Of a stretch of DNA of 64,000 nt, positions 2,587-14,455 are shown piece after piece. This stretch comes from Candidatus Gastranaerophilales bacterium (GTDB taxonomy: Bacteria; Cyanobacteriota; Vampirovibrionia; Gastranaerophilales; Gastranaerophilaceae). Under the pieces are notes generated by a model, which saw nothing but the letters and a program-made list of their open reading frames with translations, was not told the DNA's origin and searched no databases. The DNA lies in contig CALUTJ010000002.1 of NCBI GenBank assembly GCA_944323685.1, positions 62,001 to 126,000 on the forward strand, written 5' to 3'. A program made the translations under genes and the position numbers. Position 1 is the first letter of the stretch. The number at the start of each line of letters is the position of its first letter.

Positions 2587-3435
2587 ATGTATCAAAAAAT
2601 AAAATACATAATCATTGCGACAATGTTTCTTTTGATTTGTGTTGTAGTGCTTACGCTGGATGCAAACAGAAGATATAACGCAATAAAAAAAGAACAAGGC
2701 CAATCTGCACAACAAACCTCCGCGCAATCTTACACTCAACAACAAAATCAATACACCCCGACAAACAGTTCAAACAACTCTTACGGTGATTCAATGCGGT
2801 ATAAAAACAGAAACTTAAATAATCAATCAGCCACAACAGATGAGAACGAAGAGGAAGAAGAGGAAAATAGTTACAACAACAATCCTTATTCAAGGAATGC
2901 TTCTCTAAATAATCAAAATATCCCTCAAGAGTATAAATTTCCAAATAGTTTTCAAGAAAATACAACCGAGGACAAGCCCAAAACACTGGAAATTCTCGAT
3001 GCACCCAACGCCGGCTATCTCGCTGATACAACCGGCAAAAAGTCAGATAACTATAAACTCGAAAAAGTTTTCAAACTTAATCAGGAAGAATACGCAATTA
3101 TATCCGATACAAATAATACAAATTTAAGCAGTTCATCTTACTGTCAGAAGAAATTTTATATATACAAAAAAGTTGATAATGCATACAAAATGTCGAACTA
3201 TCTTTTTGATATTACAGAAAGCACAAACGCAGGCCCTGCACAAATTACAATAGAAGACAGTGACGGAACGTTGATTATAAATTACTCAGGGAGCACTCAT
3301 TTAAAAAGAACAGTTGACAACTACCAGTTAAAAAGCAGTTACAGGCAGTTTGAGTCTACTTATCCCGCTTTAATTTATAAAGAACCGCCGCAGGAAGAAA
3401 TTCAACAGCAAAACAGTTTAGATTTACAGCCTTAA
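2587..3435 (+). CDS. Membrane-anchored Asn/Gln-rich hypothetical protein
   Basis: I do not recognise the family. The 282-residue product begins with a hydrophobic segment (about 7-25, IIIATMFLLICVVVLTLDA) flanked by lysines, which reads as an uncleaved anchor placing the rest outside the cytoplasm. Residues 35-125 are low complexity, rich in Q, N, S and T with an acidic run (DENEEEEEEN), so probably disordered. The part after about residue 135 looks folded (alternating hydrophobic and polar residues, one Cys) and may be a small beta domain. A GGGGAG ribosome site lies 7 nt before the ATG. It lies alone between the pnp terminator and the pyrH promoter. Confidence 0.7.
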   Translation: MYQKIKYIIIATMFLLICVVVLTLDANRRYNAIKKEQGQSAQQTSAQSYTQQQNQYTPTNSSNNSYGDSMRYKNRNLNNQSATTDENEEEEEENSYNNNPYSRNASLNNQNIPQEYKFPNSFQENTTEDKPKTLEILDAPNAGYLADTTGKKSDNYKLEKVFKLNQEEYAIISDTNNTNLSSSSYCQKKFYIYKKVDNAYKMSNYLFDITESTNAGPAQITIEDSDGTLIINYSGSTHLKRTVDNYQLKSSYRQFESTYPALIYKEPPQEEIQQQNSLDLQP

Positions 3436-7559: not shown

Positions 7560-9353
7560 GTGAAAAAGAGAACACTAATAAGTATCGTTATTACTATTGT
7601 TTGTATTGCATTAACAAACAAATTCTGGTTCTGCATAAAACCTTTGCAGATTTCTTTTAAGGCAGAAGGTTCAGGTGACACTAAATTTGAATTCTTTTTA
7701 AACAAAGAAGACAACAACGACTTTAAAAAAGTAAAATACGGAGTTATTGAAACAAACCTTGACGAAAACGATTCTGTTGAACTTTTCATAAACAGGGTTC
7801 ACAAAGCAAAACGTGCGAAAATTACCGTCAGTGCTGTTTCTACCCCCCCCCCGCAGCTTAAAAACATTATCCTGAGCGAGTTTGAGCTAAGATATGGCAA
7901 ATATAAACTCGATGATTTAAAAGCTTTTTCTGTTGAAGGCGCAAAGCTAAAAATTGACGGCGACAGGCTAATTATTTACCCTGAGTCGGAAACTGTTTCT
8001 CTTATTTACAACAAACCTGTTGATTTAAAATCCTCAACAAAGTTTGATATTAAGTTTTTGATTGTTATAGCAGTTTTGAGCTTTTTATTATCTTACAAGC
8101 TCACCTCTTATCTTGCGGACTTTAAGACTTTAAACAATGCCTCAAGAATGGATATTGTCTTTCTTTTTATATTTTTTATTCTGCTGTTTATCCCGATTAG
8201 TCATATTGATACCCAAAGTACTAAATCAGAGAAAGAAAACAGAACACTGGCAAAATACGAGCCTTTTATAAAAGATAAAACGATAAACTTTGACTACGGC
8301 AATGATTTTGAAAAATGGTTCAATGACAGGTTTGCAGGGAGATTTTTTGTTATTCAAAATTACGTAAATTTAAAGTACAGATTAGCTCTAAATTATTTTG
8401 AGTATACAAGATATTTTATAAACAAAAAAAATAACTGGATAATGGACAATATAAAACTTGTAGAACAAATAAATACTCCCCTAAACGCAAATGATTTAGA
8501 CACAATGCTGAAAAGTATAATAACTTTTAATAATTATTGCAAAAAGCACAATATCAAATTATATATTCTGGTTTCACCGGTAAAAGAATATGTATACAAA
8601 GAAAAAAATCCATATTTATTAATTAAAGAAAATAATGCCCTGATACAGTCAAAAGAATATTTTGAAAAAGAATTAAAAAAACAAAATATAACATTTATAC
8701 TGCCTGTTGAAGAATTCAGAAACCGGAGAAACAGCGAAATATTATTTTACAAAACAGACCACCACTGGACAGAAGCCGGAGCATTTTTAGGCTATCAAAT
8801 ATTGATGAAAGAAATACAAAAAGATTTTAAAGATATAAATGTATTAGATAAAAATTTCTTTAATTACGAATATAAAAAGGAAGTAAAATACGCACTACTT
8901 AAATATTTTTATACTCCAGGAATATCATTAGAGGAAATGTTAATTAATGACAAAAAAATAACAGATACACAGTACAAGTATTTTAAAATTCCAAACAGCA
9001 TACAATCCGAAGCAAGAGTAACCCCAACAAGAAAATATTATGAAACAAAATATAATGACAAAGATATACAGGCAAATAATTTAAACGATTACTGGGCAAA
9101 CTCGCATTATAAAAAAGGAAAATATAAAGCTTTTTTGCTTGGCACTTCATATACAGCAGCAATGACACCTTATTTTCAATATACATTTAAAGACTTAATT
9201 CAAAGAAGAGTTAATGTATTGGAAGGAAAAGGCGAATTATCCATCAGGCTTTATAAAAAAGAAATCGAAAAACTAAAACCGGATATAATAATCATTTGTA
9301 TTGATTTTACCTACATAGATAGATTAAAAGACCTTAATAAAGGAGTAAACTAA
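7560..9353 (+). CDS. DHHW/AlgJ-like SGNH protein, probable glycan O-acylation partner
   Basis: The 597-residue product has an N-terminal hydrophobic segment (about 7-25), an extracytoplasmic domain to about 155, and two further membrane segments (about 160-205). The large C-terminal domain contains the D400-H401-H402-W403 motif (TDHHWTEAGA) and a later LGTSYTAA that fits the SGNH nucleophile block. These features belong to AlgX/AlgJ/DHHW-type esterase or acetyltransferase proteins that work with MBOAT membrane acyltransferases, and an MBOAT gene follows directly (stop at 9353, ATG at 9354). The start is GTG at 7560 after TTGGGGA. A run of ten C at 7843-7852 falls in the frame (Thr95-Pro-Pro-Pro) and could make the gene phase variable. 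The 3' half is clearly AT-richer than its partner. Confidence 0.75.
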   Translation: MKKRTLISIVITIVCIALTNKFWFCIKPLQISFKAEGSGDTKFEFFLNKEDNNDFKKVKYGVIETNLDENDSVELFINRVHKAKRAKITVSAVSTPPPQLKNIILSEFELRYGKYKLDDLKAFSVEGAKLKIDGDRLIIYPESETVSLIYNKPVDLKSSTKFDIKFLIVIAVLSFLLSYKLTSYLADFKTLNNASRMDIVFLFIFFILLFIPISHIDTQSTKSEKENRTLAKYEPFIKDKTINFDYGNDFEKWFNDRFAGRFFVIQNYVNLKYRLALNYFEYTRYFINKKNNWIMDNIKLVEQINTPLNANDLDTMLKSIITFNNYCKKHNIKLYILVSPVKEYVYKEKNPYLLIKENNALIQSKEYFEKELKKQNITFILPVEEFRNRRNSEILFYKTDHHWTEAGAFLGYQILMKEIQKDFKDINVLDKNFFNYEYKKEVKYALLKYFYTPGISLEEMLINDKKITDTQYKYFKIPNSIQSEARVTPTRKYYETKYNDKDIQANNLNDYWANSHYKKGKYKAFLLGTSYTAAMTPYFQYTFKDLIQRRVNVLEGKGELSIRLYKKEIEKLKPDIIIICIDFTYIDRLKDLNKGVN

Positions 9354-10754
9354 ATGCTGTTTTCATCAATGACATTTGTGTATATGTTTTTGCCGGTTGT
9401 GTGCTTGATTTATCTTTGCTCTAAAAAAGAGCTGCATAACGGCATTCTCTTAGCCGCAAGCATTTTGTTCTACGCCTGGGGCGAGCCGAGATACTTAGCC
9501 ATTATGTTTTTGACTATCATTGTCAACTACCTTGGCGCTATCGCTGTTGAAAAGTGGGAAAAGCACAAAAAACTTTCTTTAATTTTAACTGTTATTGTTA
9601 ATTTAGGCTTTCTTGCTTACTTCAAATACTTTAACTTTGTTATTGATAACATTAATCACATATTCTCTTTAGACATTAAGCTTGTTGAAGTTATATTGCC
9701 GCTCGGGATTTCTTTTTACACGTTTCAGGCAATGTCTTATCTCATAGATGTTTACAGAGGCGAGTGCAAAGCTCAGAAAGATTTTTACAAACTAGCTTTA
9801 TACATTTGTTTATTTCCGCAGTTAATTGCAGGGCCTATTGTCAAATACCACGATATTGAAGAACAGATTGACTCAAGAGAAGTTAACTTTGACAAGGTGC
9901 AATACGGGGTTAAAAGATTTATTATCGGGCTGTCAAAGAAAATGCTTATCGCAAACACAATGGGCGCTATTGCTGATAAAATCTTTATACAGAGTCCTGA
10001 TACTTTTACGCCTGTTGTTGCGTGGCTGGGTGCTGTTGCGTATTCATTCCAGTTATTCTTTGATTTTTCCGGATATTCTGATATGGCAATAGGACTCGGC
10101 GCAATATTCGGCTTCAAGTTTATGGAAAACTTTAATTACCCCTACATTTCAAAATCCATCACTGAATTTTGGAGAAGGTGGCATATTTCTTTATCCACAT
10201 GGTTTAAGCAGTACTTATACATTCCTTTAGGCGGAAGCAAGTGCGGGCTTAGAAGAACCTGTATAAATCTCGGTATAGTATTTTTCTTAACAGGTTTGTG
10301 GCATGGTGCAAGCTGGACATTTATTGTCTGGGGTGTATGGAACGGATTTTTTATCATATTAGAAAAAATTACCGGCTGGCACAAAGAGGCGCAGGGCTTC
10401 TGGATTAATTTTACAAAGCACCTTTACGCAATATTTGTATTTGTCACAGGCTGGGTTCTGTTCCGCTCTGAGGATTTTGGATATGCTTTTAAATACCTCA
10501 AGAACATGTTCGGATTAGTTAATGTTCACGATATTTCTTATGCAATGCCTTATTATGTTGACACGTACGAAGTTATCATGTTTGTTGCGGCGATAGTTTG
10601 TTCTATTCCGATTTTTCAAAACATTCTTAATGTTAACAAAGAAAACAAACTGCTCTACGGTGCGGTTAACTTATGGCTTTTATTCTTATTCCTGTTATCT
10701 TCTGCCACTATCGCTGCTTCCACTTACAACCCGTTTATCTATTTCAGGTTCTGA
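9354..10754 (+). CDS. MBOAT-family O-acyltransferase (AlgI/DltB/PatA-like)
   Basis: This is a polytopic inner-membrane protein of 466 residues that would move acyl groups, probably acetyl, from the cytoplasm to an extracytoplasmic polysaccharide. Family landmarks are FWRRWHISLSTWFKQYLYIP and GLWHGASWTFIVWG, which includes the catalytic histidine at residue 317. The length and motifs match the AlgI branch. Together with the upstream DHHW protein it forms the AlgI/AlgJ-type two-gene unit. The acceptor glycan cannot be told from the window; no alginate genes are present. The start codon follows the upstream stop without a gap, and GGAG lies about 10 nt before the ATG. Confidence 0.9.
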   Translation: MLFSSMTFVYMFLPVVCLIYLCSKKELHNGILLAASILFYAWGEPRYLAIMFLTIIVNYLGAIAVEKWEKHKKLSLILTVIVNLGFLAYFKYFNFVIDNINHIFSLDIKLVEVILPLGISFYTFQAMSYLIDVYRGECKAQKDFYKLALYICLFPQLIAGPIVKYHDIEEQIDSREVNFDKVQYGVKRFIIGLSKKMLIANTMGAIADKIFIQSPDTFTPVVAWLGAVAYSFQLFFDFSGYSDMAIGLGAIFGFKFMENFNYPYISKSITEFWRRWHISLSTWFKQYLYIPLGGSKCGLRRTCINLGIVFFLTGLWHGASWTFIVWGVWNGFFIILEKITGWHKEAQGFWINFTKHLYAIFVFVTGWVLFRSEDFGYAFKYLKNMFGLVNVHDISYAMPYYVDTYEVIMFVAAIVCSIPIFQNILNVNKENKLLYGAVNLWLLFLFLLSSATIAASTYNPFIYFRF

Positions 10755-10933: not shown

Positions 10934-13462
10934 ATGAAAAGCGTGAAAATCGGACAAATTGAACCAAAAAATCAATACGGTCTGAAGCGAAAAGAAATCC
11001 GCTATCACTATGCGGAACAGGGTTCGCTCCATTCGGGCAAACAAGATACCTTACAGAATAAAAGTATATTATCAAAACCCTTGCAAGAAGGCGCAAATGC
11101 GCAAATATCTTTCAAGGGTTTTGATTATAAATTTGCAAAAATTTCTCTTAAGCCGATTATAAAAAAAGTGCCCAAAAACCTTCAAGACAAGGTTTTTGAT
11201 TCATTAAAAAAAATAAATTCCCAACAGCATGAATACTACACAGAGATAAAAAACAAATACATAAAATATATTCTCGAACACAAGGATTTTCAACAAACAA
11301 ACGGCTTAACCCCTGAAATATTAGAAGGTCTTAAACAGGGACAGCTTATTTATGTCCCTAAAAAACCTGTTTTAACAAAATTCTTAACCCAGCTTATATC
11401 ACCTGTTACGGCAGTTTACAGATGGGGCGAAAAACTAATCCTGCCCAAAGATTCTCAAATCCTCAAAAAAAGAGCCGAAAGAGAAAAAGTGCTAAAAGAC
11501 TTCCGCTCATTAGAAGGGCTTTTAAAATCACACGAAATCTGGGAAAACGGTTATCGAAAAAAAAGCGGTCACAAAAAATTTAATGAAACCTCTAAATTCC
11601 TAATCCCTGACGATGTGCTGCTTGGAAAAATCAACAGACGAAGAAACAAAGTTGTTGACCCCAATAAAGGCAAGTATTCTTCTAACTCATTAATGATAGG
11701 CAACAGACTTATCTCGGGTATTGTTTATTCTTATTTCCTCGGGACGGACGCATATAACACAACAATGCGCTACAGCAACGACAAAAACGAAGCTGCCAAT
11801 CAAAGAAAATCCCGTGTGGCACAAGAATTTTCAAGAATAGCGATGAATATGTACATACAAAACCTGTTGTTCGGAACCTTTGAAACCGCAGTTAACAGAA
11901 GCCTTTCAACAGCAATGTTTGTGTCCGGTTCAACAGTTGCTTTTTCTGAAATATTAGGCAGAAAACTTGTAGGCAAACCGATTATGCCTTCTGACAAAGA
12001 TACTCTCGACAGGCTTGAAAAAGAAATGTATGAAAAGAAAGGCATACTGCCTTCTATCGGACGTTTGTTAACAACTGTCAAGAAAAAACCCGCAACCGCA
12101 CAGGTGCAGTCAGTATCCGCACCGCACATTGCTTTTGATAAAACAAAAGCAAATGCAAAACTCTTTAAGGCCTTTGCAAAAAACAGCGAAAAAAACACGA
12201 AAGCACTATCCGGCCAACCGCTAAAAAACAATACGGAACCTTCTTTTAAAGGTTATTACCGTGTTGAAAAACTCTTTGATAAAAACAGGCTCAACAACAT
12301 AATAAAAATACTTGAACAGGCTGACGCCCAAACAGCCGCAACACTTAAAAATGCAATCTTAAAATCAAGTGAAAAATCGGCTTTCTTTAAAGAATACAAC
12401 CTCTCGGCTCCGCAAAAATTCAGTGATTTGATAAATAAAATTGACTACACTCAAATCCCCGTAGGTACACAGGAAACCGTCTGGGGCAAATGGACCAAAA
12501 GTATACTGGTTCCGGTTAATTTTGCAAAAAATGTTGTAAGAAGAACGTACTATTTCTTCAAAAACTGCTACAACATCGTATCCGGCAAAAAAAATAACAA
12601 TCTTGAAGAAGAACTTGCAAGAGTTATGACAGAAAATACCGCATACAGCACAGGTTTTAAAAAATACCTTAACGACAGAATGGAACTTGAGGTATGGAAA
12701 ACCTCGCCGCTTTCAAAAGAAGATAAAACAATAAAAATTTATAAAGAGTACAAGTCTTCACGCAAAAAAGAAAAAGAAGACATAGAAGGTGCAAAAAACA
12801 TACTGCTCTGGCTTGATAAACAAATACACAGAGAAAATATAAAAATTCAGCCTGACGGAACTTTAGACCAAAAAGATGTAAATAAATTGCAGAATATTCT
12901 TAAAGAATCAGTAATGCGCGCCGACGGAGAAAAACAGCTTGAATACGACGGAAACACACTTGCGCAGACAAATATAAACCTCTCCCGTGCAATAACTACA
13001 CTGTTTCTTGTAACTGACGCATATAACCTTACAATGCAATACAGCAATGACAACAAAAAAGACGCAAATAAGAGCGCCAAAAACAGAGCCGCTCAAGAAA
13101 TTTCCCGTATAAGCGTGTCTGCCTACATCATGGCATTTGTTCACAACCTGTTATCAAAACTCTGCAACTCAAGCCTTGCCGGTGCATTTACCTTGACTGC
13201 GTTGACTTCATCAATTAATGATTCTATCTCAAGAGAGGTTGTAGGTGTTCCGCTGAGTGCAAAAACACAGTCCGAACTTGAAGAAATCGACAGAAAAAAT
13301 TCCCGTTCCAAAAGCCCGATAAAAAAAGCACTTGCTTATTCTATAGGCAAAAAATCCGCATTGCCGCCGCAAAATTTAACGGCAAACCTGAATAATACGG
13401 CAAAAACAACTGATGTAGATTATTTTTCAAACGACTTTTTTATAACTCCCGAAATTAATTAA
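10934..13462 (+). CDS. Large internally duplicated protein with two S-F-K-G motifs
   Basis: I do not recognise a named family. The 842-residue protein is basic and mostly helical, and consists of two diverged halves. Each half begins with an S-F-K-G motif (SFKGFDYKF at residue 59, SFKGYYRVEK at residue 437). Each later carries a block of the form TDAYNxTMxYSND (residues 271 and 694), followed by an A-rich helix with R-x-AQE-x-SRI and two moderately hydrophobic stretches. The blocks end in a conserved V-G-x-P and a charged helix (LEKEMYEKKG; LEEIDRKNSR). No classical signal peptide is seen. The hydrophobic stretches suggest membrane association. The start is the first ATG of the frame; its ribosome site is weak. 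It lies upstream of rsmH with a 30-nt gap. Confidence 0.7.
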   Translation: MKSVKIGQIEPKNQYGLKRKEIRYHYAEQGSLHSGKQDTLQNKSILSKPLQEGANAQISFKGFDYKFAKISLKPIIKKVPKNLQDKVFDSLKKINSQQHEYYTEIKNKYIKYILEHKDFQQTNGLTPEILEGLKQGQLIYVPKKPVLTKFLTQLISPVTAVYRWGEKLILPKDSQILKKRAEREKVLKDFRSLEGLLKSHEIWENGYRKKSGHKKFNETSKFLIPDDVLLGKINRRRNKVVDPNKGKYSSNSLMIGNRLISGIVYSYFLGTDAYNTTMRYSNDKNEAANQRKSRVAQEFSRIAMNMYIQNLLFGTFETAVNRSLSTAMFVSGSTVAFSEILGRKLVGKPIMPSDKDTLDRLEKEMYEKKGILPSIGRLLTTVKKKPATAQVQSVSAPHIAFDKTKANAKLFKAFAKNSEKNTKALSGQPLKNNTEPSFKGYYRVEKLFDKNRLNNIIKILEQADAQTAATLKNAILKSSEKSAFFKEYNLSAPQKFSDLINKIDYTQIPVGTQETVWGKWTKSILVPVNFAKNVVRRTYYFFKNCYNIVSGKKNNNLEEELARVMTENTAYSTGFKKYLNDRMELEVWKTSPLSKEDKTIKIYKEYKSSRKKEKEDIEGAKNILLWLDKQIHRENIKIQPDGTLDQKDVNKLQNILKESVMRADGEKQLEYDGNTLAQTNINLSRAITTLFLVTDAYNLTMQYSNDNKKDANKSAKNRAAQEISRISVSAYIMAFVHNLLSKLCNSSLAGAFTLTALTSSINDSISREVVGVPLSAKTQSELEEIDRKNSRSKSPIKKALAYSIGKKSALPPQNLTANLNNTAKTTDVDYFSNDFFITPEIN

Positions 13463-13492: not shown

Positions 13493-14455
13493 ATGGATAA
13501 GAAAAACTTAAACCCTGAATTCCAACACTATACGGTAATGGCTCACGAAGCGGTTGACGCACTAAATTGCGCCTCCGGCAAAATATATGTCGATGCAACC
13601 TTAGGCGGTGGCGGACACAGTGAACTTATACTGCAAAAAATTCAGCCGGACGGGCGTTTAATAGCTTTTGACATTGATAACGATGCGATAAATTACGCCT
13701 CGAAAAGATTAAAAGATTACAAAAATTTAACAATTGTACATGACTCATATACAAATATTAAGCAAGTTTTACAAAATCTCGGAATAAAAGAAATTACCGG
13801 CGGAATCGTCTTTGACCTCGGTGCCTCGTATCACCAGCTGACAAAGCAGGAAAGAGGTTTCAGCTTCATGAAAGATGCTCCGTTAGACATGCGGTTTAAC
13901 ACGGACAATGACTTTAGCGCCTATGACGTGGTTAACGGTTACAGCGAAGAGGATTTGATAAGAATAATAAGCGAATACGGCGAAGAACGCTTCACCAGAA
14001 GGATTGTAAAAAGCATTGTTAATTACAGAAAGACTAAAAACATAGAAACCACGCTGGAGTTAGCGGAAATTATAAAAAACTCCGTACCTAAAACAAAGGA
14101 AAAAATTCACCCCGCAACCCGCACGTTTCAGGCAATTCGCATAGAAGTTAACAATGAATTACAAAATATTAAAAATACTTTAAATGATGTGCTTACTTTA
14201 TTATCTGTTGATGCTATAATTAGTGTAATAAGTTTTCACTCTCTTGAGGATAGACTTGTTAAACAGTGTTTCAAGTATTATTCGGCCAGGTGCAGATGCA
14301 AACCCAATGAACCTGTTTGTCACTGTAAACCGCCCATGCTTGAACTTGTTAACAAGAAACCGATATTAGCTTCAGAATCTGAAATCAAAGAAAATCCTCC
14401 GTCACGATCTGCAAAACTGAGGATAGCAAAAAAAATTACGTCATGGGAGAACTAA
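13493..14455 (+). CDS. rsmH: 16S rRNA (cytosine-1402 N4) methyltransferase
   Basis: RsmH (MraW) methylates N4 of C1402 in 16S rRNA. The SAM-binding loop VDATLGGGGHSELIL, GGIVFDLGASYHQL and DAPLDMRFN are clear. The C-terminal part has SFHSLEDRLVKQCFK and PSRSAKLRIA, both typical. Unusually, a cysteine-rich stretch (CRCKPNEPVCHC) follows, consistent with the family's variable insert. At 320 residues the length is normal. The next gene begins one base after the stop and looks like ftsL, the usual neighbour in division and cell-wall clusters. Confidence 0.96.
   Translation: MDKKNLNPEFQHYTVMAHEAVDALNCASGKIYVDATLGGGGHSELILQKIQPDGRLIAFDIDNDAINYASKRLKDYKNLTIVHDSYTNIKQVLQNLGIKEITGGIVFDLGASYHQLTKQERGFSFMKDAPLDMRFNTDNDFSAYDVVNGYSEEDLIRIISEYGEERFTRRIVKSIVNYRKTKNIETTLELAEIIKNSVPKTKEKIHPATRTFQAIRIEVNNELQNIKNTLNDVLTLLSVDAIISVISFHSLEDRLVKQCFKYYSARCRCKPNEPVCHCKPPMLELVNKKPILASESEIKENPPSRSAKLRIAKKITSWEN

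What the first reader, a model, noticed from the sequence alone, without database searches (positions are those of the whole stretch)
10934..13462. 842-residue protein built from two diverged halves with paired SFKG and TDAYN motifs
Seen directly: S-F-K-G at residues 59 and 437, TDAYN-x-TM-x-YSND at 271 and 694, and A/R-rich helix plus a V-G-x-P ending twice. This points to an ancient internal duplication of a domain of about 400 residues that I cannot name. It lies upstream of rsmH.
Basis: partly seen in the sequence, partly recalled or inferred. Interest (0 to 1): 0.65.

Follow-up and report, generated by a model that had tools for sequence, protein, structure and literature searches.

The report
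Duplicated TDAYN protein with SFKG tags
A gut bacterium related to cyanobacteria carries a large protein made of two anciently duplicated halves with no known relatives, and each half begins with a four-letter 'SFKG' tag that also sits near the start of roughly one in twenty other, unrelated proteins of this bacterium, which suggests an undescribed protein-addressing signal.

Summary
The 842-aa ORF (10934-13462, +) has SFKG at 59 and 437 and TDAYN at 271 and 694. The halves align at E 4e-19 (33% over 137 aa). The duplicated unit is: disordered stretch ending in SFKG, helical domain of about 170-220 aa, and a TDAYN module of about 130 aa (three long helices). N and C modules form separate clades (100/99) across the order Gastranaerophilales, so the duplication is ancient. 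The family occurs in nearly all sampled genomes of that order and in none outside it (0 of 58 in a class sample). No Pfam, NCBIfam, PHROG, PDB-sequence or fold relative was found. One correction: SFKG is not peculiar to this domain. [SN]FK[GAS] is 6.4-fold enriched in the first 80 residues of a sample of this genome's ORFs, on unrelated proteins, and is retained in orthologues whose leaders have diverged. I read it as a short linear docking or sorting motif, and the protein as a self-assembling, membrane-peripheral scaffold addressed by two such tags. The genome also carries type III export genes, but nothing firm ties the tag to them. Duplication and tag enrichment are computed results; function is inference.

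The parts
10934..13462 (+). 842-aa two-unit TDAYN protein (stop codon included)
   Evidence: Intact ORF; 38 of 40 relatives match
11108..11119 (+). First SFKG motif (residues 59-62), end of a disordered leader (residues 1-71, pLDDT under 50)
   Evidence: Mean column identity 0.96 against 0.64 and 0.57 in the flanks
11174..11653 (+). Helical domain of unit 1 (residues 81-240)
   Evidence: AlphaFold2 pLDDT mostly 66-93; colinear weak profile match to unit 2
11654..12049 (+). TDAYN module 1 (residues 241-372), DAYN at 272-275, VGKP at 346
   Evidence: Profile search and alignment; column identity 0.92
12242..12253 (+). Second SFKG motif (residues 437-440), start of unit 2
   Evidence: Column identity 1.00 against 0.42 in the linker before it
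12254..12919 (+). Helical domain of unit 2 (residues 441-662)
   Evidence: AlphaFold2 pLDDT mostly 80-95 in the unit model
12920..13321 (+). TDAYN module 2 (residues 663-796), TDAYN at 694, VGVP at 770
   Evidence: 33% identical to module 1; column identity 0.93
13418..13459 (+). Conserved extreme C-terminus DYFSNDFFITPEIN (residues 829-842)
   Evidence: Last ten residues at column identity 0.83 after a stretch at 0.47
13493..14455 (+). rsmH (neighbour, not part of the protein)
   Evidence: PF01795, 380 bits

Best explanation
A lineage-restricted protein that arose by tandem duplication of one ~400-residue unit before the sampled families of the order Gastranaerophilales diverged. Each unit is a flexible stretch ending in the short motif SFKG, a helical domain, and a near-invariant TDAYN module of three long, moderately hydrophobic helices. 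Most likely mechanism (inferred): SFKG is a short linear docking or sorting motif recognised by a partner that serves many proteins in these cells; the two tags bring the protein to that partner, and the two TDAYN modules pack against each other and against neighbouring molecules to form a membrane-peripheral scaffold. Shown here: duplication, its age, taxonomic restriction, conservation pattern, and N-terminal enrichment of the motif. Inferred: docking, assembly and membrane association.
For: Significant half-to-half similarity. N and C modules are each one side of a branch with support 100/99 over five or more families and both paralogues. Two modules in 64 of 72 retrieved ORFs, many of the rest cut by locus ends. 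Modules at 0.92-0.93 column identity while the rest evolves fast, as expected of an interaction surface. SFKG kept at 0.96-1.00 inside variable linkers. [SN]FK[GAS] seen 19 times in the first 80 residues of 306 ORFs, 2.4 expected from shuffled N-termini, ratio 6.4 to the rest of the proteins, p 1.1e-6. Carriers are unrelated: AAA ATPases, a kinase-like and a HAD protein, many orphans. Orthologues keep the motif while leaders diverge.
Against: No partner identified. Peak hydropathy 1.33 says neither clearly membrane nor clearly soluble. TDAYN helices are predicted with low confidence. The exact SFK motif is not significantly enriched in other genera of the family (6 against 2.7 expected) or in other families of the order, where only looser forms are. 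In the unit model SFKG borders a predicted strand, so it may also be structural. ORF starts were called mechanically and the genome was sampled, not read whole.
Confidence: 0.4

Rival explanations
1. The protein is a substrate of the flagellar-type type III export apparatus kept in these largely non-flagellate bacteria; the disordered leader with SFKG is the export or chaperone-binding signal, and the TDAYN helices act on a membrane after export.
For: All 40 relatives and this genome carry FlhA-family genes, usually two full-length plus one lacking the membrane part; a FliF, FliG-like, FliH, FlhA, FliI cluster exists; an SFKG gene lies just upstream of it and keeps the motif in congeners. Tagged leaders are Ser/Asn-rich and Leu/Glu-poor, and serine-rich exposed coil is typical of type III signals (PMC3617162).
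Against: FlhA-positive families outside the order show no motif. Tagged proteins include ordinary enzymes. About 5% of the proteome is many for an export set. In other genera of the family the SFKG gene is not beside the cluster.
Confidence: 0.2
2. SFKG is a structural cap of each unit and its presence on other proteins reflects distant common descent of their N-terminal parts rather than a shared docking function.
For: AlphaFold2 places SFKG of unit 2 directly before a strand that is part of the domain.
Against: Carriers have different domains right after the motif and leaders of different length; the motif stands at 9 to 74 residues from the start.
Confidence: 0.15
3. A membrane channel or transporter with two homologous three-helix repeats, the conserved D, N, Q, E and R residues lining the path.
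For: Two homologous three-helix modules with invariant polar residues.
Against: Best 19-residue hydropathy 1.33; of 27 sequences only one passes 1.6. No transporter-like fold match with significance.
Confidence: 0.1
4. A cell-envelope or division accessory, co-transcribed with rsmH and the ftsL-like gene.
For: rsmH within 100 bases downstream in 16 of 23 loci; no + strand terminator-like site was found between them.
Against: Seven loci lack the immediate linkage; relatives in another family have other neighbours; the paralogue lies elsewhere in the genome.
Confidence: 0.1

Closest known systems
Paralogue in the same genome (G000 contig 6, 966 aa; L060:3321-6218) and its homologues across Gastranaerophilales
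   Same: Two TDAYN-type modules per protein, SFKG near the start, no Pfam match
   Different: About 32-35% identical in the modules only; motif variants NDAYN and TDNHN; tandem SFKGVSFKG; other neighbours (radical SAM/SPASM gene)
N-terminal signals of type III secretion substrates
   Same: Disordered, Ser/Asn-rich, Leu/Glu-poor leaders on unrelated proteins
   Different: Type III signals are described as having no common motif (PMC3617162), whereas here a four-residue motif is shared; export not shown
Transporters and channels with internal repeats (general class, from own knowledge)
   Same: Paired homologous helical modules with a repeated polar motif
   Different: Hydropathy too low, a large helical domain before each module, no fold match

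Membership tests
Any Pfam, NCBIfam or PHROG family | Score over the curated cut-off, or a convincing E-value | tested here: not met
   Best Pfam E 0.02 for one half, below cut-off; NCBIfam 0.076; PHROG 0.068
TDAYN two-module family (defined here) | Two modules per protein with invariant D, N, Q, R and R | tested here: met
Type III secretion substrates | Disordered, serine-rich N-terminus | tested here: met
   Residues 1-71 at pLDDT under 50; leaders of tagged proteins Ser 0.089 against 0.065, Leu 0.049 against 0.099
Type III secretion substrates | Export apparatus present in the genome | tested here: met
   FliF, FliH, FlhA and FliI genes
Type III secretion substrates | Signal follows the apparatus across taxa | tested here: inconclusive
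   No motif in FlhA-positive families outside the order, small samples
Type III secretion substrates | Release that depends on the apparatus | not testable with these tools
   Needs an experiment
Internal-repeat transporter or channel | Internal sequence repeat | tested here: met
   E 4e-19 between the halves
Internal-repeat transporter or channel | Clear transmembrane helices | tested here: not met
   Best 19-residue Kyte-Doolittle mean 1.33, below 1.6; one of 27 sequences reaches 1.7. No dedicated topology predictor was on hand
Internal-repeat transporter or channel | Known transporter fold | tested here: inconclusive
   No significant Foldseek match; the module is modelled with low confidence

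The most novel reading that the evidence does not exclude
SFKG (with variants such as NFKA and SFTG) is an undescribed N-terminal address signal present on roughly 5% of the proteome of this Gastranaerophilales genus, and the TDAYN protein, with two such signals, is a structural hub or exported assembly factor of that sorting route, possibly served by the type III export apparatus retained in non-flagellate members.
Probability: 0.2. Interest if true: 0.8.

Novelty: new variant of a known kind. Interest (0 to 1): 0.5.

Why it matters
Gastranaerophilales are non-photosynthetic relatives of cyanobacteria in animal guts whose biology is known almost only from genomes. An order-wide, duplicated protein with a near-invariant module points to a conserved function that no family database holds. 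A shared short N-terminal motif on many unrelated proteins would, if it is a sorting signal, let one list a whole set of co-localised or exported proteins from sequence alone. I call it a new variant because internally duplicated orphan proteins and N-terminal linear motifs are both known kinds; this family and this motif appear undescribed in what I could search.

Tried and rejected
Pfam, NCBIfam, PHROGs and PDB sequence searches: nothing. Foldseek and VIA-align on two AlphaFold2 models: only weak long-helix matches, none significant. Exact motif in other families of the order and in the rest of the class, with and without FlhA: not enriched; a looser [VI]SF is enriched in other families of the order. 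Unbiased search for 4-residue patterns enriched in the first 60 residues: ISFK ranks second in the own genome (p 1.1e-4), which is modest after the many patterns tried, so the statistical case rests on the motif family chosen from the finding and from reading neighbours. Phage records: no match. A viral-contig scan with the module alignment could not run. Literature: no paper with 'SFKG motif', none joining Gastranaerophilales with an N-terminal motif; subscription papers are not held. The conserved C-terminal FFITPEIN was not found at other C-termini in the sample. Some motif hits look coincidental (a membrane-anchored protein at window 7560; L072:4836, which by eye resembles a GTP cyclohydrolase), so the true tagged share is nearer 5% than 6%.

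Full report
Observation. The ORF at 10934-13462 (+) encodes 842 aa. Residues 1-400 against 401-842: blastp E 4e-19, 33% over 137 aa; Smith-Waterman 194 against at most 72 in 1000 shuffles. With 26 orthologues the TDAYN modules align at E 6e-20, the whole units at E 4.8e-17, and the helical domains alone at E 5.7e-5 with 66% probability over 68 colinear columns. Duplication is therefore well supported in the module and moderately supported outside it.

Anatomy. AlphaFold2 (27-row alignment, mean pLDDT 60; 43-row unit alignment, mean pLDDT 70) gives each unit a disordered start or linker, a confident helical domain and three long helices of low confidence for the TDAYN module. The order of secondary structure elements agrees between the units. 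Across the genus the modules keep 0.92-0.93 mean column identity, the helical domains 0.58-0.65, and the two SFKG motifs 0.96 and 1.00 inside stretches of 0.42-0.67. In 16 divergent module copies one D and one N (of DAYN), one Q and two R are invariant. Peak hydropathy is 1.33, short of typical membrane helices.

Relatives. The own genome has one paralogue (contig 6, 966 aa) with the same two-module plan and SFKG near the start. 38 of 40 relatives match. In a class sample all 19 genomes of the family match and none of 58 others; in a phylum sample all 62 genomes of the family match and none of the 84 others. Of 72 retrieved ORFs 64 hold two modules and 8 hold one, at least some of these being cut by locus ends. 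One genome, G163, has the two modules in separate open frames. In a maximum-likelihood tree all N copies form one side of a branch and all C copies the other, 100/99. So the duplication precedes the split of the sampled families and of the two paralogues. No database family, PDB sequence or fold matches, and no phage record.

Neighbourhood. rsmH follows about 30 bases after the stop here and within 100 bases in 16 of 23 congeneric loci, then an FtsL-like gene (weak Pfam match) and a short TPR protein. In most close relatives the gene upstream is another SFKG protein and then gyrB; in this genome an AlgX-like and MBOAT pair stands there instead. The linkage is common but not fixed.

SFKG as a wider motif. 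Reading the neighbours showed the motif near the start of unrelated proteins. In 306 ORFs from a sample of the own genome, [SN]FK[GAS] occurs 19 times in the first 80 residues and 10 times in the rest: ratio 6.4, p 1.1e-6; shuffled N-termini give 2.4 with sd 1.6, at most 10 in 1000. Without DAYN-bearing proteins 16 remain, with density falling from 0.83 per 1000 residues (first 40) and 0.50 (next 40) to about 0.1 beyond. Tagged proteins include AAA ATPases, a protein-kinase-like protein, a HAD phosphatase and many with no family; some of these carry the looser forms INFGS or VSFSG. Leaders are Asn/Ser/Arg-rich and Leu/Glu-poor, with mean net charge +2.9 against +0.6. Orthologues of the upstream gene, and of a gene before the export cluster, keep the motif while the leader changes. 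In other genera of the family the looser [SN]F[KGSTQNR][GAS] is enriched 2.3-fold (p 1.5e-3); outside the order the two main motif forms are not enriched. The sample is partial and ORF starts are mechanical, so the 5% figure is rough.

Type III export genes. The own genome and every relative tested have FlhA-family genes, usually two full-length and one lacking the membrane part. The contig-17 cluster is FliF, a FliG-like protein (weak), FliH, FlhA and FliI; in other families of the order proteins that by eye resemble flagellar rod proteins precede it. A published study found complete flagellar sets in only three of nine Gastranaerophilales genomes, the others having a subset that would not make a flagellum (PMC4040986). 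It is tempting to link SFKG to this apparatus, but FlhA-positive families outside the order have no motif, so export stays a rival at 0.2.

Conclusion. Shown: a real, ancient, order-restricted duplication, and an N-terminal motif enriched across unrelated proteins of this genome. Inferred: docking by SFKG and assembly through TDAYN. No function has been tested; a scaffold with two address tags is the best guess at 0.4.

Noticed in passing
G000 contigs 34, 17 and 22 (L080:4693-6801, L081:5280-12306, L082:3322-4782): Three FlhA-family genes in one genome: two full-length and one lacking the membrane part, beside a PSP1-domain gene; the pattern recurs through the order, where many members lack flagella.
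   Followed up: partly
L064:209-1849, L065:193-1827, L076:6908-8425: Two AAA ATPases and a protein-kinase-like protein carry SFKG-type motifs (SFKG, NFGS) near their N-termini.
   Followed up: partly
window 13418-13459: The extreme C-terminus DYFSNDFFITPEIN is conserved in orthologues after a variable stretch, like a second short motif.
   Followed up: partly
window 7560-10754: An AlgX-like and MBOAT acyltransferase pair stands upstream here, where close relatives have gyrB and another SFKG gene.
   Followed up: no
G163 contig 3, 105309-106803: The two modules lie in separate open frames of 370 and 434 aa: a split gene or a sequencing error.
   Followed up: no
L055:304-1275 and 2750-3106, L032:2651-3349: Proteins beginning MGMAASQAR, MGLAASQAK or MGMATAQMR near TDAYN genes, vaguely like flagellar rod N-termini.
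   Followed up: no
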